DNA of 64,000 nt from an uncultured bacterium (lineage in GTDB: Bacteria > Bacteroidota > Ignavibacteria > UBA10030 > BY39), in assembly GCA_937967455.1 (NCBI GenBank), contig CALCJK010000009.1, positions 124,001 through 188,000 of the forward strand. The letters run 5' to 3'. Shown here in pieces: positions 33,125 to 59,752 of this stretch. How positions within the stretch are numbered: position 1 is the first letter of the stretch; each line of letters begins with the position of its first letter. The position numbers were made by a program, and so were the translations under genes. Below the pieces are notes generated by a model. It had not been told where the DNA came from, ran no database searches, and saw nothing but the letters and a program-made list of their open reading frames with translations.

Positions 33125-33141
33125 ATCAATATTTATGCCAT
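33125..33141 (-). promoter_or_regulatory. Candidate sigma-54 (-24/-12) promoter of the hydrogenase operon
   Basis: Read on the minus strand this is ATGGCATAAATATTGAT. The -24 element TGGCA and a -12 TTG stand with the GG and G ten bases apart, as in sigma-54 promoters (consensus TGGCACG-N4-TTGC); the final C is replaced by A. Transcription would begin near 33115, leaving a leader of about 36 bases before the hydB ATG. Similar motifs lie upstream of ccmF and the 56938 gene. Similarity is by eye only. Confidence 0.4.
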
Positions 33142-45494: not shown

Positions 45495-46856
45495 ATGAAA
45501 TCAAGTTTTCAAGAAAAATTGGCTCAACTGATATTAGATGAGATATCGGAGAGGTTAAAAAATAGAGCATATCTGAATGAAGTACTAAGAGATTTTTTGG
45601 AATTTCCCCCAGAAAAAGTGGCTGAAGAATTTTTGAATGAGTTCGAAAAATTTTTGGGGGGAAATATAAAAGAAGAAATTCTAGATCGCTTAAAATCAAT
45701 TTATTTAAAAGAGATTCTACCACCAATTCAAGAAGGTGCAATCGAGGAGGAAAATATTCCCGGCACGATAAATCAGGAAATTGAACCTACTTCGCCACCT
45801 GCTGAATCTGCAACAATAGATGTAAGCGAAACCGTTGAGAAAAAATTAGTTAAGAAAGAGGATAAAATAATTGAAAGACCTGAAATTGAAGAACCCCAAA
45901 TTGAAGATAAAGGCACAGCCGGGGTAACTAACATTACGGAAGAAACAATTAAGTCGGATCATGGTGTAACTCAGAAATTAATTCCCTCTGAACTTGAGAT
46001 GGAAGAGTTGAAAGAAAAACCCTCAGTTTATTTTAAGAAAGAGAAAAAAACTAATATTGTCATATCAGCAAACGATTGGGTTTATTTATATGGATTCAGT
46101 TATGCACCTAATAGTGAAGGGAAAGGATATCCATCTATTGAATTGCCAATTAAAGGTGTTGACGAAAAAAATGTCGTATTTGGTTTGGACTATGGTGATG
46201 TGAGGTTATATTTAAGCAAATTACAATTTGAAAAATTTGTTATTGCTAAAACTGGTGAACATATATTAAATCCGAAAGAAGCAATTCCTTTAAAATATAA
46301 TCATTCCTGCATTATAAATCAGATTCGTACAAATGAAATTATGGTTCCTCTGGAATTCTGGACGATTAAGATGGGCAGAGAGAAAATTGTAAGGACAATA
46401 GAAGAGCGATACTTAAATTTTTTACATAGTTTGATAGACATTCACGATGCAATCGATTGGGATGTAGAAGCGTCTGTTCTTGATAATGAATTGATGAAAA
46501 TTTTAAGTGAACCTGCTGTTACAAGAACATCTGATTCGCGTTATGAAACGCGACATCCAAAAATACAGAAGATGGAAGTAAAACAATTTGAGAAGGTGCT
46601 TTTTAAAGAAAAAGAAATCGCCCAGAAAATCAATTTAACTCTGACTAAAGTAGCAAATAAAATTAAAGTTGATTATATTGTGACCCTCGAAAGTTCATTT
46701 TTGGATGGTTGGAAACCAATTTTAAGTGCAAGATATGTGGTCGGCAAAGAAAAACGCAAAGCGTTCTACCAATCAATACTTGATTTACAATCTGAATTTA
46801 TGAATTACAAAGTGATGCTTACTGTAAATAGTCCTAAGGTACATTTTAAGTTTTAA
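45495..46856 (+). CDS. GvpL/GvpF-like protein with long N-terminal extension (orphan)
   Basis: Residues 1-75 are charged helices and 76-190 a Glu/Lys/Pro-rich linker. The rest resembles gas-vesicle proteins GvpL/GvpF. It begins with VYLYGFSYAP (about 197-206). Then comes NEIMVPLEFWTIKMGREKIVRTIEERY (about 281-306), matching the family's 'LPVRFGTVF...LLEERY' stretch, and the AIDWDVEASVLD segment (family 'VEWGVKVY'). The C-terminal SARYVVGKEKRKAF and LTVNSPKVHFKF match 'AYLVDRE' and 'LTGPWPPYSF'. No gvpA or other gas-vesicle gene is in the window. The match is by eye and divergent. Confidence 0.6.
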   Translation: MKSSFQEKLAQLILDEISERLKNRAYLNEVLRDFLEFPPEKVAEEFLNEFEKFLGGNIKEEILDRLKSIYLKEILPPIQEGAIEEENIPGTINQEIEPTSPPAESATIDVSETVEKKLVKKEDKIIERPEIEEPQIEDKGTAGVTNITEETIKSDHGVTQKLIPSELEMEELKEKPSVYFKKEKKTNIVISANDWVYLYGFSYAPNSEGKGYPSIELPIKGVDEKNVVFGLDYGDVRLYLSKLQFEKFVIAKTGEHILNPKEAIPLKYNHSCIINQIRTNEIMVPLEFWTIKMGREKIVRTIEERYLNFLHSLIDIHDAIDWDVEASVLDNELMKILSEPAVTRTSDSRYETRHPKIQKMEVKQFEKVLFKEKEIAQKINLTLTKVANKIKVDYIVTLESSFLDGWKPILSARYVVGKEKRKAFYQSILDLQSEFMNYKVMLTVNSPKVHFKF

Positions 46857-46937: not shown

Positions 46938-48737
46938 GTGAATAAATTATATCTAAAAGGCGATGAGTTATTTGAAAAAGCTACGGATTACTGTTTTATT
47001 GTAAATCAGGATGGGTTGATTTTGGATGTTAATCCCTCTGCTCAAGAAAAATTAAAGATATCTCTTGAGGATCTGACAAATAGACCAATTACGGAATTAC
47101 TGTCATTGGAAACAAGGGAGAGTTTTAAAAAAGTTTTTAATAATACAATAAATGGAAACAATTCATCTATAATTGAGGCTGAATTACTTAGCTCATCCTT
47201 AGAAATTATTAATGTTTCGATTTCAATATTTAAATTAAATGGTAAAGAAGATAAAGCCGTTTATTTTGTTAGTGCTCGCGATATAAGTGAGCAACGAAGA
47301 GCACAATTGCAACTTTTGCGTTTTGCAAACGCTATTCATTATACAATTAATCCAATTGAGATAACAGATGTTGATGGAAAAATTATTTATGTTAATCCAG
47401 CATTCGAGAGGGTAACAGGTTATGCGAAACATGAATTAATAGGAAAGAATCCCAATATTTTGAACAGTGGTCGGCAACCAAAAGAGTTTTGGCAAAATAT
47501 GTGGGAAACCATTTTAAAAGGAAAAGTGTGGACAGGTGAAATAGAAAATAAAACTAAAGATGGTAAACTAGTGAATGAGAGACTTTTGGTTTCTCCTATC
47601 ATAGATCCGTCAGGTAAACTCATTGGTTTTTTAGGTATACATAATGATTTGACTGAACAGAAGAAGTTAGAAAATGAACTTGCTAAAGTCAGCGCATATA
47701 TGGCTGCAATACTAGACGACTCCACTGATGCAATTATTGGTTTGGATTGCAATTTCAATATAAGGTCCTGGAACAAAGGTGCAGAAAAAATTTATGGTTA
47801 TAAGGCAGAAGAAATACTCGGTAAAAACTTTTCAGTACTTGTTCCACCTGATTTAATTAAGAGTGGTGAACTGGAATACCTCAATGAAGAATTTAAGAAA
47901 AAAGGATATATAAGGAACTATGAAACAGAAAGACTGACAAAAGATGGAAAAAGAATATCAATCGAGTTGACTAGAACATTGGTTAAAGATTCAAATGGAA
48001 ATGTTATCGGCAGTTCAGCCATTGTTCGCGATGTTACTGAGCTGAAAAAATTAAAAAGACAGATAAGTCACGCTGAAAAATTATCTGTAGTTGGTCAATT
48101 AGCCGCCGGGATTGCACATGAAGTTGGGAATCCACTTACTTCAATTTCATCAATAGTTCAGGTTATTCAGCGAACTACGAATGATACATTTGCAATTGAG
48201 AAACTGGAGCTTGTTAAAAATCAAATTAATAGAATTGCAAAAACAATTCGTGAGCTTGTTGATTTTTCAAGACCATCTAATTATGAGATTAGGCAAACAG
48301 ATGTGAATAAATTATTACAAGATGCAGTCAATATTATACGATATGGAAAAAAATCTAAGGATATTAATTTTGTACTTGAGTTAAGCAATAAAATTCCTAG
48401 AATAACCCTTGTTCAGGATCAAATTATTCAGGTTTTTATAAACCTTTTATTGAATGCGGTTGATGCAATGGAAGGTAAACCTGGTGAAATCAAAGTAAAA
48501 TCAGAGCTATTTGGTAATCATATTAAAATTCATTTTATCGATAAAGGAAAAGGTATTCCAGATGAAATTAAGAATAAAATATTTGAGCCATTTTTTACAA
48601 CAAAGAAAGTTGGCGAAGGTACAGGTCTGGGTTTATGGGTAAGTTATGGAATCGTAAAAAATTTTGGTGGCGATATTGATTTTGAAAGCAGAATAGGTGA
48701 AGGAAGTATATTTACAATTAGTTTACCAATATCTTAA
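46938..48737 (+). CDS. PAS-domain sensor histidine kinase (NtrB-like)
   Basis: The 599-residue kinase starts with GTG at 46938. It has three PAS domains (about residues 5-118, 120-240 and 250-370), then a HisKA domain with phospho-accepting His in [15 protein letters not shown]. The catalytic domain follows: [11 protein letters not shown] (N box), [26 protein letters not shown] and SIFTISLPI. No membrane helix is visible, so it probably senses a soluble cue such as redox state. A sigma-54-type response regulator follows 15 bases later, forming a cognate pair. Confidence 0.92.
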
Positions 48738-48752
48738 CAAATTTTTAATAGT

Positions 48753-50105
48753 ATGAAAAAGAAAATATTAGTGGTTGATGACGAATCCATAATACGAGAA
48801 TCCTTGGTATTCGTCCTCAGTAAGGAAAATTATGAAGTTGATGAAGCTTCTAATGGATTGCAGGCACTGGAAAAAATAAAATCTGACAATTTTGATTTGT
48901 TGATCACAGATATTGAAATGCCTGAGTTAAAGGGAATTGAATTATTGGAGAAAGTCAGACAATACTCACCAGATACATTTGTTATTTTAATTACTGCTTA
49001 CGCATCAATTGAAACAGCAATATCTGCGTTTCGAAAGGGTGCGTCAGATTATATATTGAAACCACTTGAATTTGAGGATTTGTTACACAGGGTGAAAAAA
49101 ATATTTGAATATAAAGAACTTCTTCAGGAAAATATAAATTTACGAGCAGAATTAAATAGGGAATATGACTTCTCAAATATTGTTGGGAACAGTCCTGCCA
49201 TGAAACAAGTTTTTGAACTTGTAAAAAAAGTATCGAAAACAGATGGGACTGTGTTAATCACAGGTAAAAGCGGGACAGGGAAAGAATTAATTGCAAGAGC
49301 TATTCATTACAATAGTAAGCGAGCAAGCCAAAAATTTGTTGCAATAAATTGTGGTGCAATTGTGGAAACTCTTTTTGAGAGTGAATTATTTGGTCATAAA
49401 AAAGGGTCCTTTACAGGTGCTACTTCGGATAAAGAAGGACTTTTTAAAATCGCCGACGGTGGTACAATCTTTCTTGATGAGGTAAGTGAAATACCAATTC
49501 ATTTACAGGTCAAACTTTTACGTGTAATAGAGGAAAGGGAAGTTTTACCTGTCGGGAGTACTACTCCTATCAAAGTAGATGTCCGAATTATCACCGCCTC
49601 AAATAAATCGCTTAGCGAATTGGTTGAAGAAGGTAAATTTCGGGAGGATTTGTTTTATCGTTTAAATATTGTAGAAATACATTTACCTGCTCTTGAGGAG
49701 AGAAAGGAAGATATTGCCCTATTGATCCAGCATTTCATAAAAAAACATGGTAAGAGAATGGGTAAAGTTGTACACGGGGCAACAAATGAGGTTGTAAGGG
49801 TTCTAATGAACCATACATGGAGAGGTCAAGTGCGTGAGCTTGAAAATATTATTGAACGGGCACTGATATTTGCTGAAAGTGATTATCTAACTCTTAAAGA
49901 TTTACCAGAAGAATTCAGGGTTAAGGCAACAAAAAATTTTTTACAGACATCTTCGAAACTTAAAGATAAGATCAGAGAGTTTGAACGAGATTATATTAAA
50001 AGCAGGCTTGAGTTTCATCAATACGATAAAAATCTGGTTGCAAGCGAGCTTGGAATTAGTGTATCATCCCTTTATCGTAAAATAGACGAGTTAGGTATTA
50101 GTTGA
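48753..50105 (+). CDS. Sigma-54-dependent response regulator (NtrC family), copy 1
   Basis: The 450-residue protein has a receiver domain (acidic pocket Asp9-10, phospho-acceptor Asp53, Lys in LKPLEF). An AAA+ domain follows, with Walker A GKSGTGKE and the sigma-54-contact loop GSFTGA at residues 218-223, and a Fis-type helix-turn-helix (about 410-450). GSFTGA is a functional variant of GAFTGA in known activators. It should activate sigma-54 promoters upon phosphorylation by the adjacent kinase. Copy 2 lies beyond ccmF. Confidence 0.93.
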   Translation: MKKKILVVDDESIIRESLVFVLSKENYEVDEASNGLQALEKIKSDNFDLLITDIEMPELKGIELLEKVRQYSPDTFVILITAYASIETAISAFRKGASDYILKPLEFEDLLHRVKKIFEYKELLQENINLRAELNREYDFSNIVGNSPAMKQVFELVKKVSKTDGTVLITGKSGTGKELIARAIHYNSKRASQKFVAINCGAIVETLFESELFGHKKGSFTGATSDKEGLFKIADGGTIFLDEVSEIPIHLQVKLLRVIEEREVLPVGSTTPIKVDVRIITASNKSLSELVEEGKFREDLFYRLNIVEIHLPALEERKEDIALLIQHFIKKHGKRMGKVVHGATNEVVRVLMNHTWRGQVRELENIIERALIFAESDYLTLKDLPEEFRVKATKNFLQTSSKLKDKIREFERDYIKSRLEFHQYDKNLVASELGISVSSLYRKIDELGIS

Positions 50106-50195: not shown

Positions 50196-50212
50196 TGGCA
50201 TATTTATTGAAT
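50196..50212 (+). promoter_or_regulatory. Candidate sigma-54 (-24/-12) promoter of ccmF
   Basis: ATGGCATATTTATTGAA has TGGCA and TTG at the correct -24/-12 spacing, with the last C of the consensus replaced by A. Transcription would begin near 50221, ahead of AAAGG and the ccmF ATG at 50239. It follows a gene for a sigma-54 activator. Confidence 0.4.
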
Positions 50213-50238: not shown

Positions 50239-52464
50239 ATGGATATAGGTTTAATATTATTAATTTTTGCATTTGCTATTTCACTTATTACAGCTTATTT
50301 CTATTTTCAAGCTGCAAGAGGTGATATACAATCTCTGAAAATAGCCAGAATTATATATAAATTAAACACAGTCATTCTACTTGTTGTAAGTGGTTATCTA
50401 TTATATCTTTTGTTGTCGCATCAATTTAACTACGATTATGTATATAGATATAGTTCCCGTTCATTACCAACTGGATATCTAATTTCTGCTTTCTGGGCTG
50501 GTCAGGAGGGTTCATATTTGCTGTGGGTTTTATACTTGGGATTGTTAGGTATTCTTTTTATGAGAGGTGTTGGTAAATACGAATCTTATTCAATGATTGT
50601 AGTATCGTTAGCAAAATCCTTCTTAATTTTGTTAATGATAGATAAAAGTCCTTTCGAATTATTACCAGTTACTCCACCCGATGGTGCTGGATTGAATCCA
50701 TTACTGCAGGATCCATGGATGGTGGTGCACCCACCTATATTATTTATTGGTTATGCTTCAAGTACTTTTCCTTTTGCATTATCTATTGCTGCAATTCAAA
50801 AAAACGACTATGTAAATTGGATCAAACATGCTTTAAGATGGAGTCTAATAGTCTCCATAACACTTGGTGCAGGTATAATCATCGGTGGATTCTGGGCATA
50901 TGAAGTGCTGGGATGGGGTGGATACTGGGGCTGGGACCCTGTAGAAAACTCATCTCTGGTTCCGTGGTTAGTGACATTAGCTTTATTTCATGGAATTTTA
51001 ATTCAAAAGATGAAAAACTCACTTGTACGTTTTAACCTTTTTCTTTCAATCTTAGCTTTTGTTTTGGTTATTTATGCAACATTCTTAACACGTAGTGGTG
51101 TATTAGCAAATTTTTCAGTTCATTCTTTTGCTGGCGAAGGGCAAAACCATTTATTAATTGGTTTTATGTTGATAACATTAGTTGTGAGTTTATTTTTATT
51201 TTTTAAGAACTTTGAAAAAGTTCAAACTAATAGTTTTGATCCTTTTAAGTTGAATCGTGAAAGTGGGCTTTTCTGGAGCATGGTAGTTTTATTATTAAGT
51301 GGATTGTTTACATTCATCGGCACATCTTCTCCCATAATCACTGGAATTTTTTCTTCCTCACCGACTCCAGTAGAAACTACATTTTATAATCGAGTGAATT
51401 TCCCGTTGGGAATATTAATATTGTTGCTATTGGGTATTACACCACTCCTTTTATGGGGAAATTCAAAAATGGAGTCTTTCGTTAAATATTTTAGTATTTC
51501 TGTAGCTTTTGCTCTTGGAAGTACAGCTTTTGCCTATGTTCTTGGTGTAAGAGAAATTAAAATCTTGATATATATAACTGCATCAACATTTGCGATTGTT
51601 TCAAATTTTTTAATGTTACTTTTACATTTAAAAGTGAACATTATTAATATTGGTGGCCCTTTAGCACATTTTGGAGTTGCGTTAATGTTTTTGGGAATAA
51701 TAGTATCAGGTAATTTTGATAGAACTGAAAGGGCTTTACTAGAATTGCATAAACCTTCAAAGATTGGTGAATATCAATTAATTTATCATGGCATTTCAAA
51801 TAATCCATCTGGTAAGACTGAAATAAATATTGAAATGCAAAAGGACGGGAAGAGTATAAATAAGAAACCTAAGCTTTATTTTAGCACTTATAATAATGCA
51901 TGGATGCGCGAACCGGATATTACAATATTTCCTCTTTATGACTTATATATTTCGGTAATGGATAGACAACAATCTTTAGATGAAAATTCAAACAGACTTA
52001 TTTTAAAGAAAGGTGATACTCAAGAATTTGAAAACTATGAGCTAACCTTCCAGAATTTTGAATTTGAAAATCATGGAATGGATGAGGACATTAAGATTGC
52101 TGCAAATATAAATGTTAAATATAACGGTAAGAATTTTGTAATAAAACCTGCAATGTTATATCAAAAAAATCAAAAAATATCTGATCCTGTGGATTTGCCA
52201 TCCGATTCAGCAAAAAAGTCGGTTGCATTATCTGATATTAATGCTGATGAAAAAATGATAGCTCTATTATTCTATGGATTCAGTAATTCAGGATCGAAGG
52301 TGATCGACTATGTTCTTGTTGAGTTTACGGTGAAACCATTTATGAATTTTGTCTGGTTTGGTGCCATTATTTTAATACTTGGTTCTGTTATTGCATATGT
52401 TCGAAGGGTAAAAGAAAATAAAACAAATAACGAAAATTATGGCAGAACGAATCTTAATAGTTGA
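50239..52464 (+). CDS. ccmF: CcmF-like cytochrome c haem lyase subunit
   Basis: The 741-residue protein has about 13 to 15 membrane helices and the WWD-type haem-handling region GYWGWDPVENSSLVPWL (about residues 229-245, family form WWFWDPVEN). Earlier come GLNPLLQDPWMVVHPPILFIGY and STFPFALSI. It attaches haem covalently to CxxCH motifs in the System I route. Genes for cytochromes with 9 and 13 such motifs lie downstream, explaining its presence. It overlaps the second response regulator's start by 26 bases. Confidence 0.9.
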   Translation: MDIGLILLIFAFAISLITAYFYFQAARGDIQSLKIARIIYKLNTVILLVVSGYLLYLLLSHQFNYDYVYRYSSRSLPTGYLISAFWAGQEGSYLLWVLYLGLLGILFMRGVGKYESYSMIVVSLAKSFLILLMIDKSPFELLPVTPPDGAGLNPLLQDPWMVVHPPILFIGYASSTFPFALSIAAIQKNDYVNWIKHALRWSLIVSITLGAGIIIGGFWAYEVLGWGGYWGWDPVENSSLVPWLVTLALFHGILIQKMKNSLVRFNLFLSILAFVLVIYATFLTRSGVLANFSVHSFAGEGQNHLLIGFMLITLVVSLFLFFKNFEKVQTNSFDPFKLNRESGLFWSMVVLLLSGLFTFIGTSSPIITGIFSSSPTPVETTFYNRVNFPLGILILLLLGITPLLLWGNSKMESFVKYFSISVAFALGSTAFAYVLGVREIKILIYITASTFAIVSNFLMLLLHLKVNIINIGGPLAHFGVALMFLGIIVSGNFDRTERALLELHKPSKIGEYQLIYHGISNNPSGKTEINIEMQKDGKSINKKPKLYFSTYNNAWMREPDITIFPLYDLYISVMDRQQSLDENSNRLILKKGDTQEFENYELTFQNFEFENHGMDEDIKIAANINVKYNGKNFVIKPAMLYQKNQKISDPVDLPSDSAKKSVALSDINADEKMIALLFYGFSNSGSKVIDYVLVEFTVKPFMNFVWFGAIILILGSVIAYVRRVKENKTNNENYGRTNLNS

Positions 52465-53824
52465 TGATGAAGAGATCATCCGTGATTCGATATCCTTTAT
52501 ACTTCAGAAGGAAAATTATGATGTAGAAACGGCAGAAAATGGTATGGAGGCACTTACAAGACACTTGAATACTCCGTTTGATATAGTCATTACTGATTTG
52601 GAAATGCCAGAAATGAAAGGTATTGAATTGTTGGAAAGAATTCATCAAGCGACACCGGAAACATTCGTGATTATAATTACTGCTTTTGCCTCTGTGGAAA
52701 GTGCAATATCTGCATTAAGAAGTGGGGCATTTGATTATTTAATAAAACCAATTGATTTTGATGATTTATTATTTAGGATTAATAGAATAAAAGCGCATAA
52801 AAATTTAATTCTTGAAAATAATCGATTAAAAAAAGAAATAAATCAAGATTTTGACTCAGACAATATCATCGGTAAGAGTCAGGCAATGAAAAAAGTTTTT
52901 GAAATTGTTCAATATGTATCTAATTCTTGTGGTAATGTGATTATTTATGGTAAAAGTGGTACAGGCAAAGAATTAATTGCTCGAGCTATACACCGAAATA
53001 GTCCTAGGAAAGACTATCTATTCGTTCCAGTTAATTGTGGAGCCATAGTTGAAACATTATTTGAGAGCGAATTATTTGGTCATAAAAAAGGTGCCTTTAC
53101 TGATGCTATTTGCGATAAAGAAGGATTTTTCAAATTGGCAGATAAAGGGACTCTATTCTTAGATGAAATTAGTGAAATTCCTTTGAGCTTGCAAGTAAAA
53201 TTACTTAGAGCTATTGAAATGATGGAAATATATCCAGTAGGTGATTCAAATCCGCTTAAAGTTGATGTCAGAATAATTGCCTCCACAAATAAAGATTTAA
53301 ATAAGCTAGTGGAAGAAGGAAAATTCAGGGAAGATTTATATTATCGACTGAATGTTGTACAAATAAACCTTCCATCATTGTCTGAAAGAAAAGAAGATAT
53401 ACCACTGCTAATCAATTACTTTATTCAAAAATATAACAGGCAAATGAACAAAAATATCAGAGGCGTAGAGAATGATGCACTAAAGGCATTGATAAATCAT
53501 ACTTGGAAAGGTGAAGTTAGAGAACTTGAAAATGCTATTGAACGATCAATGATATTTGCTTCAGGCGAAAAAATTTCCTTAACTGATTTGCCAGAAAATA
53601 TAATTAACGAACACAGAGAAAATTTTAAAGGAGATGTCCGGTCTCTGGACCAAGCAATTAAGGAATTCGAAAAAAATTATATTGAAAAAGTATTAAAATA
53701 TTTTAATAATGATAAAGAGAAAACAGCTCGAGCTTTAAACATTAGTGTATCAACATTGTATAGGAGATTACAAGAATTAGGTATTGTTCATAAGGAAATT
53801 ATGAAAAGTTATTACGATACATGA
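52439..53824 (+). CDS. Sigma-54-type response regulator (NtrC family), copy 2 with altered GAFTGA loop
   Basis: The 461-residue protein aligns closely with copy 1 through the receiver (Asp53, Lys in IKPIDF), AAA+ domain (Walker A GKSGTGKE, residues 171-178) and Fis-type helix-turn-helix, plus a short C-terminal tail. At residues 218-223 the loop reads GAFTDA (Asp encoded by GAT at 53102-53104), not GAFTGA. The Gly-to-Asp change may weaken sigma-54 contact or alter specificity. No own kinase is adjacent, so it may share the copy-1 kinase. Start lies inside ccmF. Confidence 0.9.
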   Translation: MAERILIVDDEEIIRDSISFILQKENYDVETAENGMEALTRHLNTPFDIVITDLEMPEMKGIELLERIHQATPETFVIIITAFASVESAISALRSGAFDYLIKPIDFDDLLFRINRIKAHKNLILENNRLKKEINQDFDSDNIIGKSQAMKKVFEIVQYVSNSCGNVIIYGKSGTGKELIARAIHRNSPRKDYLFVPVNCGAIVETLFESELFGHKKGAFTDAICDKEGFFKLADKGTLFLDEISEIPLSLQVKLLRAIEMMEIYPVGDSNPLKVDVRIIASTNKDLNKLVEEGKFREDLYYRLNVVQINLPSLSERKEDIPLLINYFIQKYNRQMNKNIRGVENDALKALINHTWKGEVRELENAIERSMIFASGEKISLTDLPENIINEHRENFKGDVRSLDQAIKEFEKNYIEKVLKYFNNDKEKTARALNISVSTLYRRLQELGIVHKEIMKSYYDT

Positions 53825-53947: not shown

Positions 53948-56767
53948 ATGAAAAACTTCAAAATAATTTTGTTTTTGATAGTTCTTTTGATTTGTTTTAA
54001 TCAATCTTTTCCACAGAAAGCAGCTATCAAGATCGAAGCTATGTCGATCCATAAGCTGCATGAATTAGGATTACCGAATCCTAATAATTGGGATTATGTT
54101 TCTACTGGCTTGAGTACAGTTGGTGTTGGTACAATGGTGTGGTTAACTGGTTGGGATACAACGGGTAATACGGCATTTAAACCAGCAAATTCATATTTGT
54201 GGGAATTTGAATCAAAACCATCCGGGTCTTTAACCGACTTTACCTCAGCTAATACGCAATTGACTTCGTTCCAACCTGATCTGGTCGGTGACTATATTGT
54301 TCGATTGACAATTACAACCGATTTGGGTACAAATTCTACCACACAAAAAATTACTGCATCTAATTATACAGGAACTAATTGGAAAAACGTGGCTGGAGCT
54401 GGTTTTAATTGCGCTTCTTGTCATGCTACTGCGACCCCCACCGTATATACTACTTGGAAGACTTCTGATCATGCAACAATGTTTGAACGTGGTATGAATG
54501 GTCAGCTTTCTCCCTACTGGGGCGAAAGTTGCTTCAAATGCCACACAACAGGTTACAATTTAAACTCAATGGCGGTTAATGGTGGATTTGATGATGTAGC
54601 ACAAAATGTTGGATTTATTTGGGATGAATGGAAACCCGGTCGCGCAGGTTTGTTTGATTCACTTCTAACTACTGATAAGAAAACTCTAAGCCTTGTAGCA
54701 GGAATTACATGTGAGAGTTGCCATGGTCCAAAAGATCCTTTACATTTTGGAGCTGGTACACAGCCAAAAACAATGGATGCTGGCGTTTGTGCGCAGTGTC
54801 ATGATGAACCATGGCGGTATAATCGTTATGTGCAATGGGAAAATTCCGGACATAGCGAAGCAATATGGTCAAATTCATTCAGAACTACAGGAGCTCCTGT
54901 AGGTACAAACTATAATTTGAATGCTTGTGTGCGTTGCCACGATGGACAAGCATTTGTTAATTTCACAAAAGGTAAACCTTTTGATAATAGTGTTGCTGCT
55001 GGTTATGGTCCACTTGCACACACAAAGATTACCTGTCAAACCTGTCATGAACCTCATTCAATGGGACTTCGAACTGCACCAGCTTCCTCAGATACTCTTG
55101 GAAATGGCTATGATTATTCAAGTTTCAATTTTGGTGATGGGAAAATTTGCGTAAATTGCCATAAATATCGTAGAAATAACCAAAGCTATGTTCTGACCCC
55201 AATGAGTCCATTCTGGGGTCCACATTATAGAGGTGCTACTGATATATTCCTTGGACAGAATGGTTATACATTTGGTGCAAATCTACCTTCAAGTATTGCA
55301 CATCAAAATGTAGAAAATACATGTGTAGGATGCCATATGTCCGCTACTCCTGATACAGGGACACCAGCTCGCGACAAAATTGGTATGCATACTTGGAATA
55401 TGCGCTATGTATCCGACACTCAAGTGGAATATCATAATGTGACTGGATGTATTTCCTGCCATTCTGGAATTAACAAGTTTGAAGATATTTTTGCTTCATA
55501 TGACTATGATAAAGATGGAAATACTGAACCTTTTATTGTTGAAGTAAATGGTTTACTTAAAAAGTTAGCAAAATTATTACCACCATTTGGAAGCGAAACT
55601 ATAAATCGGAATTTAATTAGTGCAAGTCCAGACTCAGCATTATTCAAGAAAGCCTTCTGGAATTATTTGTATGTTAATTACGATGGTAGCAATGGTGTGC
55701 ATAATCCAAAATATGTGGTTTCTTTATTGCAAAATACTATAGAAAATGTTTATTATGCGGTATTTGCAGGTCAAATTGGTGCCATCCAGGATGTGCCAAA
55801 CGACCAGGGTAAACAAGTTCAGATTATCTGGTATAAATTCCCTGGTGAAACCGATACACTAAATCCAATTAAGACATATGCAATTTGGAGAATGGACGAT
55901 AGCCCGATTGGTAAGGCAAAGGAAATTAATGATTTTAAGGATATTGACTATAAATATCTAAATTCCGGTCAACAATATAATGTAGCTGGAATTGTTTGGA
56001 CATTTGTAGGCTGGACTCCAGTGGCAGGTTTTGACCTTTACTCTGTTAATGTTCCAACGTTATATGACTCAACTGTTGAGAATGGTATTTACTGGACTAA
56101 ATTTAAGATTTCTGGACATGCTGCTGACTATACACCACTTGTTTGGTCTAAAGTAGATTCGGGATATTCAGTGGACAATTTGGTCCCCAATCCACCGCTT
56201 GGTTTGACAGCAAAGATGGTAGTTGATGCGGTAAAACTTGAATGGCAGGAAACATCAGATCCGGACATTAAATACTTTGCCATATACAAAGGTTTAACAC
56301 CTGATTTTGATTATGAAAATACTCCACCAATTGGTACAACCACGCAGACTTATTTTGTTGATTCTGATGTACAGCAAGGTGTAAAATATTACTATGTTGT
56401 TAGAGGTGTGGATTTCTCCGGAAACAAAGGTAAGGTCTCATTAGTCTCGATAACGGTCTTAGATGTTAATAATAATATTGAATTGCCAACAAGTTTTGCT
56501 TTAGGCCAAAATTATCCAAATCCATTCAATCCAAGTACAAGTATTAAATATCAAGTTCCTGTTGCTGGTAATGTAAAGATTACTGTTTACAATGCTATTG
56601 GACAGGAAATTGTTACTTTAGTAAATCGCAATCACGAAGCTGGTTATTATACAATTTCTTGGAATGGAATAGATAAGTCTGGAAATCTAGTCCATAGTGG
56701 TATTTATCTTTATAAGATGGTTGCTGGTAATTATACTGCTGTTAAGAAAATGTTATTCCTGAAGTGA
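53948..56767 (+). CDS. Nine-haem cytochrome c with T9SS C-terminal sorting domain
   Basis: The 939-residue protein has a signal peptide and an N-terminal Ig-like domain. Nine CxxCH haem sites follow, from CASCH (about residue 157) to CISCH (about 502). A middle region of unknown fold, a fibronectin-III-like domain (about 760-840) and a type A T9SS sorting domain (about 842-939, with LGQNYPNPFNPST and a terminal KKMLFLK) complete it. It should be exported by the Sec route and then passed to the cell surface. Such a cytochrome would suit electron transfer to extracellular acceptors. Confidence 0.88.
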   Translation: MKNFKIILFLIVLLICFNQSFPQKAAIKIEAMSIHKLHELGLPNPNNWDYVSTGLSTVGVGTMVWLTGWDTTGNTAFKPANSYLWEFESKPSGSLTDFTSANTQLTSFQPDLVGDYIVRLTITTDLGTNSTTQKITASNYTGTNWKNVAGAGFNCASCHATATPTVYTTWKTSDHATMFERGMNGQLSPYWGESCFKCHTTGYNLNSMAVNGGFDDVAQNVGFIWDEWKPGRAGLFDSLLTTDKKTLSLVAGITCESCHGPKDPLHFGAGTQPKTMDAGVCAQCHDEPWRYNRYVQWENSGHSEAIWSNSFRTTGAPVGTNYNLNACVRCHDGQAFVNFTKGKPFDNSVAAGYGPLAHTKITCQTCHEPHSMGLRTAPASSDTLGNGYDYSSFNFGDGKICVNCHKYRRNNQSYVLTPMSPFWGPHYRGATDIFLGQNGYTFGANLPSSIAHQNVENTCVGCHMSATPDTGTPARDKIGMHTWNMRYVSDTQVEYHNVTGCISCHSGINKFEDIFASYDYDKDGNTEPFIVEVNGLLKKLAKLLPPFGSETINRNLISASPDSALFKKAFWNYLYVNYDGSNGVHNPKYVVSLLQNTIENVYYAVFAGQIGAIQDVPNDQGKQVQIIWYKFPGETDTLNPIKTYAIWRMDDSPIGKAKEINDFKDIDYKYLNSGQQYNVAGIVWTFVGWTPVAGFDLYSVNVPTLYDSTVENGIYWTKFKISGHAADYTPLVWSKVDSGYSVDNLVPNPPLGLTAKMVVDAVKLEWQETSDPDIKYFAIYKGLTPDFDYENTPPIGTTTQTYFVDSDVQQGVKYYYVVRGVDFSGNKGKVSLVSITVLDVNNNIELPTSFALGQNYPNPFNPSTSIKYQVPVAGNVKITVYNAIGQEIVTLVNRNHEAGYYTISWNGIDKSGNLVHSGIYLYKMVAGNYTAVKKMLFLK

Positions 56768-56787: not shown

Positions 56788-56821
56788 AAAGTCGGAATCT
56801 TTTAAGATTCCGACTTTTTTT
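56788..56821 (+). terminator. Intrinsic terminator after the nine-haem cytochrome gene
   Basis: A perfect 13-bp inverted repeat (AAAGTCGGAATCT / AGATTCCGACTTT) with a TTTA loop is followed by a seven-base T tract. It lies about 20 bases after the stop codon at 56767. This separates the cytochrome gene from the receiver/CbcL-like pair, which therefore need their own promoter. Confidence 0.85.
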
Positions 56822-56905: not shown

Positions 56906-56922
56906 TTGGCATAATAATTGGA
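56906..56922 (+). promoter_or_regulatory. Candidate sigma-54 (-24/-12) promoter of the receiver/CbcL-like pair
   Basis: TTGGCATAATAATTGGA has TGGCA and TTGG with GG ten bases apart, as in sigma-54 promoters, except that the last C is G. Transcription would begin about 5 bases before the ATG at 56938, giving an almost leaderless message. It lies 85 bases after the intrinsic terminator. Confidence 0.45.
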
Positions 56923-56937
56923 AATTATTTTAATTAA

Positions 56938-57336
56938 ATGAGAAACCAGAATCCCAAAATATTCATATATAGTACAGATTTAGATTTTTGTAATAGCATT
57001 TCGTTATTACTTCAATCAAAGTATCAAATAAGTTATTCCACGAATGCGATAAAGTTTGCAGAATATGATGTTGATCTCATAATTATTGATATTCCTTTTT
57101 CAGATGTCAAAATATTAAACACATTGAAAGATATTAAAAATACAAAACCTGAAATAAAGATTTTATTATTATATATATATAGGATTAATGAAGTTGAGAT
57201 TGAGAATGGTTATAGGAAATATTCTGATCTACTATTATATAAACCGATCGATATTATGCAATTAACACTTGCTGTAGAAAATTTAATTTTTGAAAAAACA
57301 AAAGGGTCTCTATCAAAAATAAGAAAAATTTTATGA
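56938..57336 (+). CDS. Receiver-like single-domain protein
   Basis: This 132-residue protein fits a response-regulator receiver fold. The acidic N-terminal strand (STDLD, Asp14/16), the probable phospho-acceptor Asp51 in LIIIDIP and Lys102 in YKPID are at the right spacing. The conserved Thr/Ser of the switch is a Tyr (about residue 79), so classical phosphorylation may be altered. It has no output domain. Its stop overlaps the start of the 13-haem cytochrome gene by 4 bases. Confidence 0.7.
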   Translation: MRNQNPKIFIYSTDLDFCNSISLLLQSKYQISYSTNAIKFAEYDVDLIIIDIPFSDVKILNTLKDIKNTKPEIKILLLYIYRINEVEIENGYRKYSDLLLYKPIDIMQLTLAVENLIFEKTKGSLSKIRKIL

Positions 57337-59477
57337 AAATTTACATCTCACAAATATTCGTATTGACTGTGTTAATTATACTCCAAACAACAGTATCTCG
57401 GTCTCAAAATAATGATGACTGTTTATCATGCCATAGTGATAAGTCTTTAACAATGTTAAAAGCTGGAAAGACGATATCTTTATGGATCAACGAAGAAGAA
57501 TTTTCGAAATCTGTGCATTCAGTACTTGAATGTATTGATTGTCATAGTGGTTTTAATCCCAATGAGATTCCGCATGCAAAAAAAATTAAAACAGTTAAAT
57601 GTTTGAACTGTCATGATGGGGATAGGATTAATTTATATACTCAAAGCGTTCATGCCAGAGTTAAGGGTGGTGCACAATGCAAAGATTGTCATGGTAGTCA
57701 CGATATAATTTCTTTAGAGGATTTGAGAAAGTCAGAAAATAGACAGAGAGAAGCTCAATTATGTGGTAGATGTCATAGCGAAGTTGTGACGCATTACTTG
57801 GATAGTGATCATGGGAAAGCTTTAATTGCTGGTGTAAAAGGTGCTCCATTTTGTACTGATTGCCATGGTGAACATACAATCCAAACAGTGACATCAGAAG
57901 AATCACAAGTGAGTCGACAAAATGAAGCATTAATGTGTTTGAAGTGCCACCTTGATAATCCAGATGTACGAGCATCTGTTAGCCCAACTGCAAGTTTTAT
58001 AAAAGGATACACAGAAAGTGTGCATGGGATTGCTTTAAAAGCTGGAAAGTTAAATTCCGCTACCTGTAGTGATTGTCATAGTGCCCATGATGTGAAAAAA
58101 GGTAGTAACTCAGCTTCCATGGTTTATAAAAATAATATTGCAATGACCTGTGGAAAATGTCATCAGGAACAAAGCAAGTTATATTTAGAAAGTGAACATG
58201 GGAAAGCGTTAGATAAAGGTGTATTTTCATCTGCTACATGTACTGATTGTCATGGGGAACACAAAATTTTACCTCACGACGACCCCAATTCGCCGATTGC
58301 TGCTATGAATGTTTCGGGGCAGGTTTGTAAACCATGTCACGAATCTGTGAAATTAACAGAGAAATATGGAGTTGCTGGTAATCGCTTTGCAACTTTTTCA
58401 GATAGTTATCATGGCTTAGCTGTAAAAGCCGGAGATGTATCAGTGGCGAATTGTGCATCATGCCATGGGTACCATGATATCAAAGGTTCAACAGACCCTA
58501 CATCTCGAATTCATAAATCAAATTTGGCAAAAACTTGTGGGAGTTGTCATCCAGGAGCAAATGAAAATTTCACTAAAGGTGCAGTACATCTAAATGTTAA
58601 ATCAAAAGAAGAACCATTACTCTATTTTGTTTCCACGACTTACATTATTTTGATTATTACGATAATTAGTGGGATGTTCTTTCATAATTTGTTAGATTTC
58701 ATTAAAAAAGCCAAAAGACAATTGATGATACGAAGGGGACTTATTCCTCAACATCGAGTTAGTCGCAGATTGTATTTGCGCATGACGGTTTCTGAACGTA
58801 TACAGCATTTATCCTTGATGCTGAGTTTCTTTACACTAGTTATTACTGGTTTTATGCTAAAATATCCAGATGCCTGGTGGGTTGTGTCAATAAGAAACAT
58901 AAGTTCACATATTTTCGAGATTCGTGGAATATTACATCGTGTGGCTGCGGTAGTGATGATTTTAGCAAGTCTTTATCATGTTTATTATATAAGTTTTACT
59001 GAAAGAGGACGGCAGCTCATTAAGGATTTGCTTCCAGTCCGAAAAGATATAATAGATGCAATTGCTGTTCTTAGGTACAATTTAGGATTAAATAATACAA
59101 AACCAAAATTTGATCGTTTTAGTTATATAGAAAAAGCTGAGTACTGGGCTTTAGTATGGGGCACGATTGTTATGGTAATCACTGGTTTCATATTATGGTT
59201 TGATAATACATTTATTGGTTTATTAACAAAATTGGGTTGGGATGTTGCAAGAACAATTCATTATTATGAAGCTTGGTTGGCAACACTTTCAATTTTTGTT
59301 TGGCACATTTATTTTGTAATTTTTAATCCTGATGTATATCCTATGAATTTGGCATGGATTAAAGGAACTCTAACAGAAACAGAAATGGAAGAAGAACACG
59401 CGCTTGAATTAGAAAGAATAAAGCGAGAAGAAAGAAAAATTCTGGAAGCTGAAAAAGCACAAATTACGGAAGATTAA
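57333..59477 (+). CDS. 13-haem cytochrome c fused to a membrane cytochrome b, CbcL-like
   Basis: The 714-residue protein has a signal peptide and 13 CxxCH haem-binding motifs over about residues 30-410. A membrane anchor (about 432-450) follows, then a domain of about four helices with paired histidines (QHLSLMLSF, LHRVAAVVM, YHVYYI, VWHIYF), as in HydC/FdnI-type cytochrome b. The same order of domains is found in Geobacter CbcL, an inner-membrane quinol oxidoreductase for low-potential metal reduction, which has nine haems c. It would take electrons from quinol to periplasmic haems. Confidence 0.85.
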   Translation: MKIYISQIFVLTVLIILQTTVSRSQNNDDCLSCHSDKSLTMLKAGKTISLWINEEEFSKSVHSVLECIDCHSGFNPNEIPHAKKIKTVKCLNCHDGDRINLYTQSVHARVKGGAQCKDCHGSHDIISLEDLRKSENRQREAQLCGRCHSEVVTHYLDSDHGKALIAGVKGAPFCTDCHGEHTIQTVTSEESQVSRQNEALMCLKCHLDNPDVRASVSPTASFIKGYTESVHGIALKAGKLNSATCSDCHSAHDVKKGSNSASMVYKNNIAMTCGKCHQEQSKLYLESEHGKALDKGVFSSATCTDCHGEHKILPHDDPNSPIAAMNVSGQVCKPCHESVKLTEKYGVAGNRFATFSDSYHGLAVKAGDVSVANCASCHGYHDIKGSTDPTSRIHKSNLAKTCGSCHPGANENFTKGAVHLNVKSKEEPLLYFVSTTYIILIITIISGMFFHNLLDFIKKAKRQLMIRRGLIPQHRVSRRLYLRMTVSERIQHLSLMLSFFTLVITGFMLKYPDAWWVVSIRNISSHIFEIRGILHRVAAVVMILASLYHVYYISFTERGRQLIKDLLPVRKDIIDAIAVLRYNLGLNNTKPKFDRFSYIEKAEYWALVWGTIVMVITGFILWFDNTFIGLLTKLGWDVARTIHYYEAWLATLSIFVWHIYFVIFNPDVYPMNLAWIKGTLTETEMEEEHALELERIKREERKILEAEKAQITED

Positions 59478-59569
59478 ATCATTAAAATGTAATTACTTAC
59501 TTTAGAGATTTTTTAAATAAAGTAGTAATTTTTGCTTATAAGTAATATTTTCTGTAATTTATAATCGTA

Positions 59570-59752
59570 ATATTTAACTAAAAAAATATGCCCTTTTAAG
59601 CATCATTTCACAGGGTAAAATTTTAAAGTTCTCATCTACATTATAATCTTAGAAAACAAATTCATGCGGAAGTTTAGTGATCAAAAATTCCGCAACGGTA
59701 AGAAATCTTACTTCGTTCTTAAGGTTAATAATAAAATTAAAGGATAATATAA
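59570..59752 (+). promoter_or_regulatory. Structured leader ahead of maeB, with weak likeness to a cobalamin-riboswitch core
   Basis: Between the CbcL-like gene and maeB lie 275 bases. A TTGCTT box (59532-59537) with TAATTT/TATAAT (59555-59565) could be a promoter. The leader has paired CCCT/AGGG (59591-59615), hairpin GCGGAA/TTCCGC (59666-59693), and AACGGTAAG-AAAT-CTTACTTCGTT (59694-59717). The order GGAA, GTG, AAAA, CCGCAACGGTAA recalls part of the cobalamin riboswitch core, but the flanking stems and 3' box are missing. Confidence 0.3.

What the first reader, a model, noticed from the sequence alone, without database searches (positions are those of the whole stretch)
53948..56767. Nine-haem cytochrome c with a T9SS sorting domain
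The protein combines nine CxxCH motifs, an FN3-like domain and a C-terminal YPNPFNPST-type sorting domain. This implies a multiheme cytochrome shipped through the type IX secretion system and fixed on or released from the surface. It could link CbcL-like electrons to external acceptors without a porin-cytochrome conduit.
Basis: partly seen in the sequence, partly recalled or inferred. Interest (0 to 1): 0.68.

Follow-up and report, generated by a model that had tools for sequence, protein, structure and literature searches.

The report
Exported nine-haem cytochrome, type IX tagged
This gene encodes a nine-haem, electron-carrying protein that carries the C-terminal tag of the type IX secretion system; it belongs to a family whose 55 sampled full-length members all carry that tag and nearly always co-occur with a known kind of outer-membrane electron conduit, so it is probably the outermost step by which these bacteria pass electrons to material outside the cell.

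Summary
In detail: window 53948-56767 encodes 939 aa with nine CxxCH motifs and a type-A T9SS sorting domain (TIGR04183, 37 bits; AF2 pLDDT 92; fold like the PorU CTD). The FN3-like stretch is not supported by Pfam. The genome encodes SprA, PorU, PorV, PorZ and PorX above curated cut-offs, so T9SS export is credible. 'Without a porin-cytochrome conduit' is not supported: on the same contig, 18-26 kb beyond the window, lies a pcc-type cluster (430-aa putative barrel, 14-haem cytochrome, haem lipoprotein) matching the published Ignavibacterium album cluster. Among 60 relatives the conduit's 14-haem gene occurs in 32 of 33 genomes with this cytochrome and 13 of 27 without; in one relative the two are adjacent. 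The haem domain is homologous to OcwA, the nonahaem surface terminal reductase of Thermincola (profile E=1e-30, nine haems collinear). All 55 sampled full-length members carry the tag; related cytochromes inside pcc clusters are lipoproteins. Best reading: an OcwA-like terminal cytochrome placed outside the cell by T9SS, fed by CbcL-like/NapC-like quinol oxidation through the conduit. No paper found describes T9SS-delivered multihaem cytochromes. Export, electron flow and function are untested.

The parts
53948..56767 (+). T9SS-tagged nonahaem cytochrome c, 939 aa (P0001)
53948..54016 (+). Predicted Sec signal peptide, residues 1-23 (by eye; conserved ...AQ/PQ end in relatives, no lipobox)
   Evidence: reading of the alignment; no predictor run
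54017..54382 (+). N-terminal region, weak PKD/Ig-like match
   Evidence: PF22352 E=0.011; PDB profile match 6nz0 at profile positions 77-133 E=1.8e-4; 3 of 27 members
54383..55747 (+). Nonahaem domain (residues ~146-600), OcwA/NrfA superfamily; nine CxxCH, 8 invariant further His plus residue 291 (Tyr here, His in 25 of 27)
55760..56482 (+). Beta-rich linker region, FN3-like by eye; absent from the ~700-aa members of the family
56495..56764 (+). T9SS type-A C-terminal sorting domain (residues 850-939)
56788..56817 (+). Intrinsic terminator-like hairpin (13 bp stem, T tail) directly after the gene
   Evidence: longest stem in the scanned region; 5 sites found against 4.1 expected, so the scan alone is weak
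50196..50211 (+). Sigma-54-like -24/-12 site upstream of the CcmF gene; probably the start of CcmF-NtrC-cytochrome transcription
   Evidence: similar site upstream of ccmF in G001, G003, G004
50239..52464 (+). CcmF/NrfE-type haem lyase, 741 aa
   Evidence: PF01578, PF16327; TIGR00353 E=1.5e-81, below cut-off
52439..53824 (+). NtrC-type sigma-54 activator with receiver domain
48753..50105 (+). Second NtrC-type regulator, conserved in the same place in G001, G003 and others
   Evidence: hits to w48753
46938..48737 (+). PAS histidine kinase, likely partner of the NtrC-type regulators
56907..56922 (+). Sigma-54-like site upstream of the receiver/CbcL-like pair; conserved in G001, G003, G004 and G035
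56938..57336 (+). Small receiver-like protein, 132 aa, between the cytochrome and CbcL-like genes in several families
   Evidence: PF00072 E=4e-4, below cut-off; synteny
57333..59477 (+). CbcL-like quinol-oxidising module: 13 CxxCH + cytochrome b561, 714 aa (P0002)
   Evidence: homologues inside the pcc cluster in G046 and G044 and at its edge in G313

Best explanation
The gene encodes an OcwA-like nonahaem cytochrome. It crosses the inner membrane by Sec, receives its haems in the periplasm (a CcmF-type lyase is encoded two genes upstream), and is then carried across the outer membrane by the type IX system, whose sortase removes the C-terminal tag and attaches the protein to the surface or releases it. 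Outside the cell it is the last or next-to-last carrier of an extracellular electron transfer chain: CbcL-like and NapC-like/Rieske-cytochrome b modules oxidise quinol, a porin-cytochrome conduit (P0003/P0004/P0005) brings electrons through the outer membrane, and this cytochrome takes them on to minerals, humics, electrodes or partner cells. Shown here: sequence homology, the tag, the presence of T9SS core genes and conduit candidates, gene neighbourhood and co-occurrence. Inferred: haem loading, export, location, direction of electron flow, acceptor.
For: Haem part: best PDB profile match is OcwA 6I5B (E=1.2e-30), then OmhA 6QVM (2.5e-22), NrfA and octahaem reductases; nine motifs collinear with OcwA. 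OcwA is a cell-surface terminal reductase (PMC6703420). Tag: 54 of 55 full-length members carry the CTD and the 55th is frameshift-split with its CTD in the next frame, L083:93-998. T9SS: SprA, PorU, PorV, PorZ, PorX; SprA in 60 of 60 relatives. Conduit. Link: 32/33 versus 13/27 co-occurrence, genus level 25/25 versus 5/16; in G055 two T9SS cytochromes lie directly upstream of the porin/14-haem/lipoprotein genes (L057); CbcL-like homologues sit next to the T9SS cytochrome in G001, G003, G004, G017, G023 and G035, and inside the pcc cluster in G044 and G046. Regulation: conserved sigma-54-like sites with two NtrC-type regulators encoded alongside.
Against: No experiment shows export, haem content or electron transfer. 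PorL/M motor genes were not found with TIGR03517, though that control was uninformative, and PorK/N were not searched. The putative porin has no NCBIfam, Pfam or PDB profile match, so its barrel nature rests on synteny, length and the published I. album case. Co-occurrence is not corrected for phylogeny, and G010 has the cytochrome without a detected 14-haem homologue. T9SS is universal in the order, so its presence alone discriminates nothing.
Confidence: 0.6

Rival explanations
1. It is a surface or secreted enzyme, such as a nitrite, hydroxylamine or other small-molecule reductase, rather than an electron-transfer end point. The OcwA/NrfA superfamily contains such enzymes and OcwA itself has two open haems.
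For: Profile matches to NrfA (4.7e-14) and octahaem nitrite reductase (1e-12); OcwA reduces nitrite and hydroxylamine slowly (PMC6703420); residues aligned with OcwA's two open haem pockets (291 and 426) are retained in most members.
Against: In this protein residue 291 is Tyr. OcwA's nitrite turnover is about 1 per minute. Neighbours are CbcL-like and conduit genes, not nitrogen genes.
Confidence: 0.15
2. One reading: the T9SS cytochrome links CbcL electrons to external acceptors with no porin-cytochrome conduit.
For: CbcL-like gene is adjacent; the gene lies apart from the pcc cluster in this genome; G010 has the cytochrome but no 14-haem homologue.
Against: A pcc-type cluster is on the same contig and its 14-haem gene accompanies the family in 32 of 33 genomes. 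A cytochrome outside the membrane still needs a conductor through it.
Confidence: 0.05
3. The electron flow is inward or buffered: the protein takes up electrons (Fe(II), electrodes, partner cells) or stores charge at the surface.
For: Multihaem chains are reversible; the sequence does not fix direction (general knowledge).
Against: CbcL-like modules are proposed quinol oxidases (PMC6295460); a cultured relative, Melioribacter roseus, is reported to use Fe(III) as acceptor (PMC3534657).
Confidence: 0.1
4. The C-terminal domain is a plain Ig/FlgD-like fold and the protein stays periplasmic.
For: The fold also matches FlgD (3osv, E=4e-4), and FlgD_ig scores above its cut-off.
Against: TIGR04183 above cut-off; the same tail occurs at more than 80 places in this genome; the PorU CTD is among the best full-length fold matches; the other multihaem proteins of the CbcL/pcc loci lack it.
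Confidence: 0.06

Closest known systems
OcwA of Thermincola potens (PDB 6I5B), nonahaem cell-surface terminal reductase
   Same: Nine collinear haem motifs; the six distal His of bis-His haems have counterparts (H175, H266, H302, H370, H481, H585); C-terminal NrfA-like part
   Different: Gram-negative diderm instead of monoderm; T9SS tag; N-terminal PKD/Ig-like region and extra beta region; extra invariant H452; Tyr at one pocket position
Pcc outer-surface cytochromes of Ignavibacterium album / Geobacter OmcB type (PMC4245776)
   Same: Multihaem cytochromes meant for the outer face, same gene neighbourhood network; lipoproteins in the pcc clusters of relatives are homologous to its haem domain (125-183 bits)
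   Different: Those are lipoproteins without CTD and form a separate clade; this one has no lipobox and a T9SS tag
MtrC/OmcA of Shewanella
   Same: Pfam PF22113 MtrC/MtrF domain II/IV match, 49.6 bits over cut-off 30; surface role proposed
   Different: Nine not ten haems, NrfA/OcwA-type haem order, no lipobox, T9SS delivery
T9SS type-A cargo of Bacteroidota (gingipains, RemA, glycoside hydrolases)
   Same: TIGR04183 tail, same sorting machinery
   Different: Cargo is a nine-haem cytochrome; no T9SS cytochrome found in the literature searched

Membership tests
T9SS type-A cargo | C-terminal sorting domain above the curated cut-off | tested here: met
   TIGR04183 37.4 vs 23 bits; fold matches the PorU CTD
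T9SS type-A cargo | T9SS outer-membrane machinery in the genome | tested here: met
   SprA, PorU, PorV, PorZ, PorX over cut-offs
T9SS type-A cargo | T9SS motor/ring (PorL, PorM, PorK, PorN) | tested here: inconclusive
   TIGR03517 found nothing but its control rang nowhere; PorK/N/L not searched
T9SS type-A cargo | N-terminal Sec signal peptide | tested here: inconclusive
   MKNFKIILFLIVLLICFNQSFPQ read by eye; relatives share the pattern; no predictor available
T9SS type-A cargo | Shown export to the surface or medium | not testable with these tools
   Needs fractionation or shaving
OcwA-like nonahaem cytochromes | Significant similarity over the haem domain with nine collinear haems | tested here: met
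   E=1.2e-30, 109.8 bits; printed alignments cover all nine motifs, the first two weakly
OcwA-like nonahaem cytochromes | Distal His for haems 1, 3, 4, 6, 7, 8 | tested here: met
   H175, H266, H302, H370, H481, H585 invariant in 27 and aligned with OcwA His; pairing of each His with a haem is inferred
OcwA-like nonahaem cytochromes | Open haems 2 and 5 with His-His pockets; haem 9 His/Met | tested here: inconclusive
   Position 291 is Tyr here, H426 kept, M464 kept, extra invariant H452; no structure
Porin-cytochrome (Pcc) cluster at C9:206329-214480 | Adjacent genes for a porin-like barrel, periplasmic multihaem and outer-membrane multihaem cytochrome | tested here: inconclusive
   14-haem and 7-CxxCH lipoprotein met, composition as in I. 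album; barrel not verified: no family or PDB match
CbcL-like quinol oxidase | N-terminal multihaem part fused to a cytochrome b561-type membrane domain | tested here: met
   13 CxxCH + PF01292 E=3e-16; orthology with Geobacter CbcL not tested
MtrC/OmcA | Ten haems and lipoprotein signal | tested here: not met
   Nine CxxCH, no lipobox

The most novel reading that the evidence does not exclude
The type IX secretion system exports folded, haem-loaded cytochromes as a regular third stage of extracellular respiration in this bacterial class: an OcwA-type terminal cytochrome is placed outside a porin-cytochrome conduit by T9SS, in place of, or beside, homologous lipoproteins, and the whole chain is under common sigma-54/NtrC control.
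Probability: 0.5. Interest if true: 0.75.

Novelty: new variant of a known kind. Interest (0 to 1): 0.58.

Why it matters
Ignavibacteria are reported from anode biofilms, aquifers and iron-dosed sludge (PMC7399161, PMC11708057, PMC11495043), but the outermost step of their extracellular electron transfer is not described. If right, T9SS is a delivery route for electron-transfer cytochromes, which means it moves a protein with nine covalently bound haems across the outer membrane. It would also say where electrons go after the Pcc conduit in these bacteria, and give a searchable signature (CxxCH array + CTD) for extracellular respiration in the wider Bacteroidota/FCB group, where searches based on lipoproteins and porins would miss it.

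Tried and rejected
The single-motif list stops at C9:206949, so the haem inventory of C10-C39 rests on two paired-motif patterns. Scanning genome contigs with the full alignment picked the CTD as its pattern, so only one true homologue (L086) came from it; the other loci served for the CTD model. A viral-contig scan found no relative. The GldM search gave no match with an uninformative control. The porin alignment found nothing in the PDB. Considered and rejected: plain MtrC-type decahaem lipoprotein (nine haems, no lipobox); conduit-free pathway (a pcc-type cluster is present); bis-His ligation of all nine haems (tempting from nine conserved extra His in the family, but the alignment with OcwA puts two of them in haem pockets and one is Tyr here).

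Full report
1. The observation. The ORF is at 53948-56767, 939 aa. It has nine CxxCH motifs (shuffle mean 0.01) and a C-terminal domain that passes the T9SS type-A model (TIGR04183 37.4 bits, cut-off 23). An AlphaFold2 model of the last 100 residues, built on an alignment with CTDs from other phyla, has pLDDT 91.9, and its PDB matches include the PorU CTD (6za2, TM 0.66) as well as FlgD. The FN3-like domain is not supported by Pfam in this protein. There is a Sec-type signal by eye and no lipobox.

2. What the haem domain is. A profile of 27 relatives (residues 1-596) against the PDB gives OcwA of Thermincola potens first (6I5B, E=1.2e-30), OmhA of Carboxydothermus second (6QVM, 2.5e-22; the entry is titled 'Multiheme cytochrome cf', the identification as OmhA is mine), then NrfA and octahaem nitrite reductases. 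OcwA is also a nonahaem; the printed alignments pair all nine haem motifs in order, the first two weakly. The six His that correspond to OcwA's bis-His haems (1, 3, 4, 6, 7, 8; PMC6703420) are invariant in all 27 relatives (H175, H266, H302, H370, H481, H585). H426 aligns with OcwA's haem-5 pocket. Residue 291 aligns with the haem-2 pocket and is His in 25 of 27 but Tyr in this protein and in L069. One further His (452) is invariant here and absent from OcwA. Haem pairing is inferred, not modelled.

3. The tag is a family trait. Among 55 full-length members from this order, its class and one other class of the phylum, 54 carry the CTD and the 55th is split by a frameshift with its CTD in the next frame. 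The family is nearly confined to one class. A shorter T9SS-tagged group (~515-534 aa, 4 members) exists. Twelve more distant homologues of ~355-432 aa have no CTD; most have a CEGPxGP/CKGPxGP-type lipoprotein start and most sit in pcc clusters; they form their own clade (support 0.86). So related haem domains appear to reach the outside by two different routes.

4. Machinery. SprA, PorU, PorV, PorZ and PorX are present above curated cut-offs, porZ-porU-porV together on C10 and porX beside sprA on C12. The motor was not found with one model whose control was silent, so it is unresolved. SprA is present in all 60 relatives. More than 80 places in this genome match the tail.

5. The conduit. On the same contig, C9:206329-214480 (18-26 kb past the window), lie a 6-haem NapC-like protein, a Rieske protein, a cytochrome b, an 11-haem cytochrome, a 430-aa protein without any family match, a 14-haem cytochrome (403 aa) and a lipoprotein with seven CxxCH plus atypical motifs. 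This is the published make-up of the I. album pcc cluster: porin IALB_1839, 14-haem 400-aa IALB_1838, outer cytochrome IALB_1837 with atypical motifs (PMC4245776). The 430-aa protein is conserved in the same position in 15 genomes, but its barrel was not verified.

6. How they connect. The 14-haem gene is found in 32 of 33 genomes with the T9SS cytochrome and 13 of 27 without (strong hits only, phylogeny not corrected). In G055 two T9SS cytochrome genes lie directly upstream of porin, 14-haem and lipoprotein genes (L057). The CbcL-like gene is next to the T9SS cytochrome in G001, G003, G004, G017, G023 and G035, and inside the pcc cluster in G044 and G046; the NapC-like 6-haem gene is shared between the two settings. 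This ties the window's genes to the conduit by neighbourhood.

7. Expression. TGGCAY-N5-TTG(A/G) sites lie upstream of the CcmF gene (50196) and of the receiver/CbcL-like pair (56907); equivalent sites occur at the same places in G001, G003 and G004, at the CbcL side in G035, and similar ones lie upstream of the T9SS cytochrome itself in G023, G035 and G058. There are three exact matches in the window against 0.66 expected, so the conservation carries the weight. Two NtrC-type activators are encoded here. No terminator-like site lies between 50239 and 53948 other than weak ones inside ccmF, and a 13-bp hairpin follows the cytochrome. I infer a CcmF-NtrC-cytochrome transcript, linking haem attachment with its product.

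8. Judgement. Literature searches for T9SS with multihaem cytochromes or extracellular electron transfer found no description, but subscription journals and preprints are largely not in the library, so priority cannot be claimed. All statements on location and electron flow are inference.

Noticed in passing
window 54818-54820 (residue 291): Tyr replaces a His that 25 of 27 relatives keep, at the position aligned with OcwA's haem-2 pocket; the same-genus homologue has His.
   Followed up: partly
window 59478-59752; L054:2788-5650; L055:15641-18509: The same-genus and same-family genomes carry a 19-haem cytochrome and a cytochrome b gene between the CbcL-like gene and the malic enzyme gene; both are missing here.
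   Followed up: partly
L004:301-1848 (G000:C18:85364-86911): A second T9SS-tagged multihaem protein in the same genome: 515 aa, 8 CxxCH, CTD, weakly similar to 6QVM and OcwA.
   Followed up: partly
L063:7934-10111, L066:11169-14078, L077:6521-8719, L079:8423-11377, L082:4104-6227: In several relatives the first haem site reads CX1CH (e.g. CFCH, CGCH, CACH) with the distal His kept, an unusual spacing; others have CX3CH or CX5CH there.
   Followed up: no
L057:2834-12309 (G055): Two T9SS cytochromes directly upstream of a complete porin, 14-haem and lipoprotein cluster.
   Followed up: yes
L222:3190-4443 (G000:C9:83190-84443): Octahaem protein (PF13447 multi-haem cytochrome) without CTD.
   Followed up: no
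window 45495-46856: GvpL/GvpF-like domain (gas vesicle protein family) in the C-terminal half of a 453-aa protein next to the sensor kinase.
   Followed up: no
window 33126-33140, minus strand: A third sigma-54-like site (TGGCATAAATATTGA); its target gene was not examined.
   Followed up: no
G000:C3:154325-158992: A second, PorU-like 1817-aa open frame with its own CTD, below the PorU cut-off.
   Followed up: no
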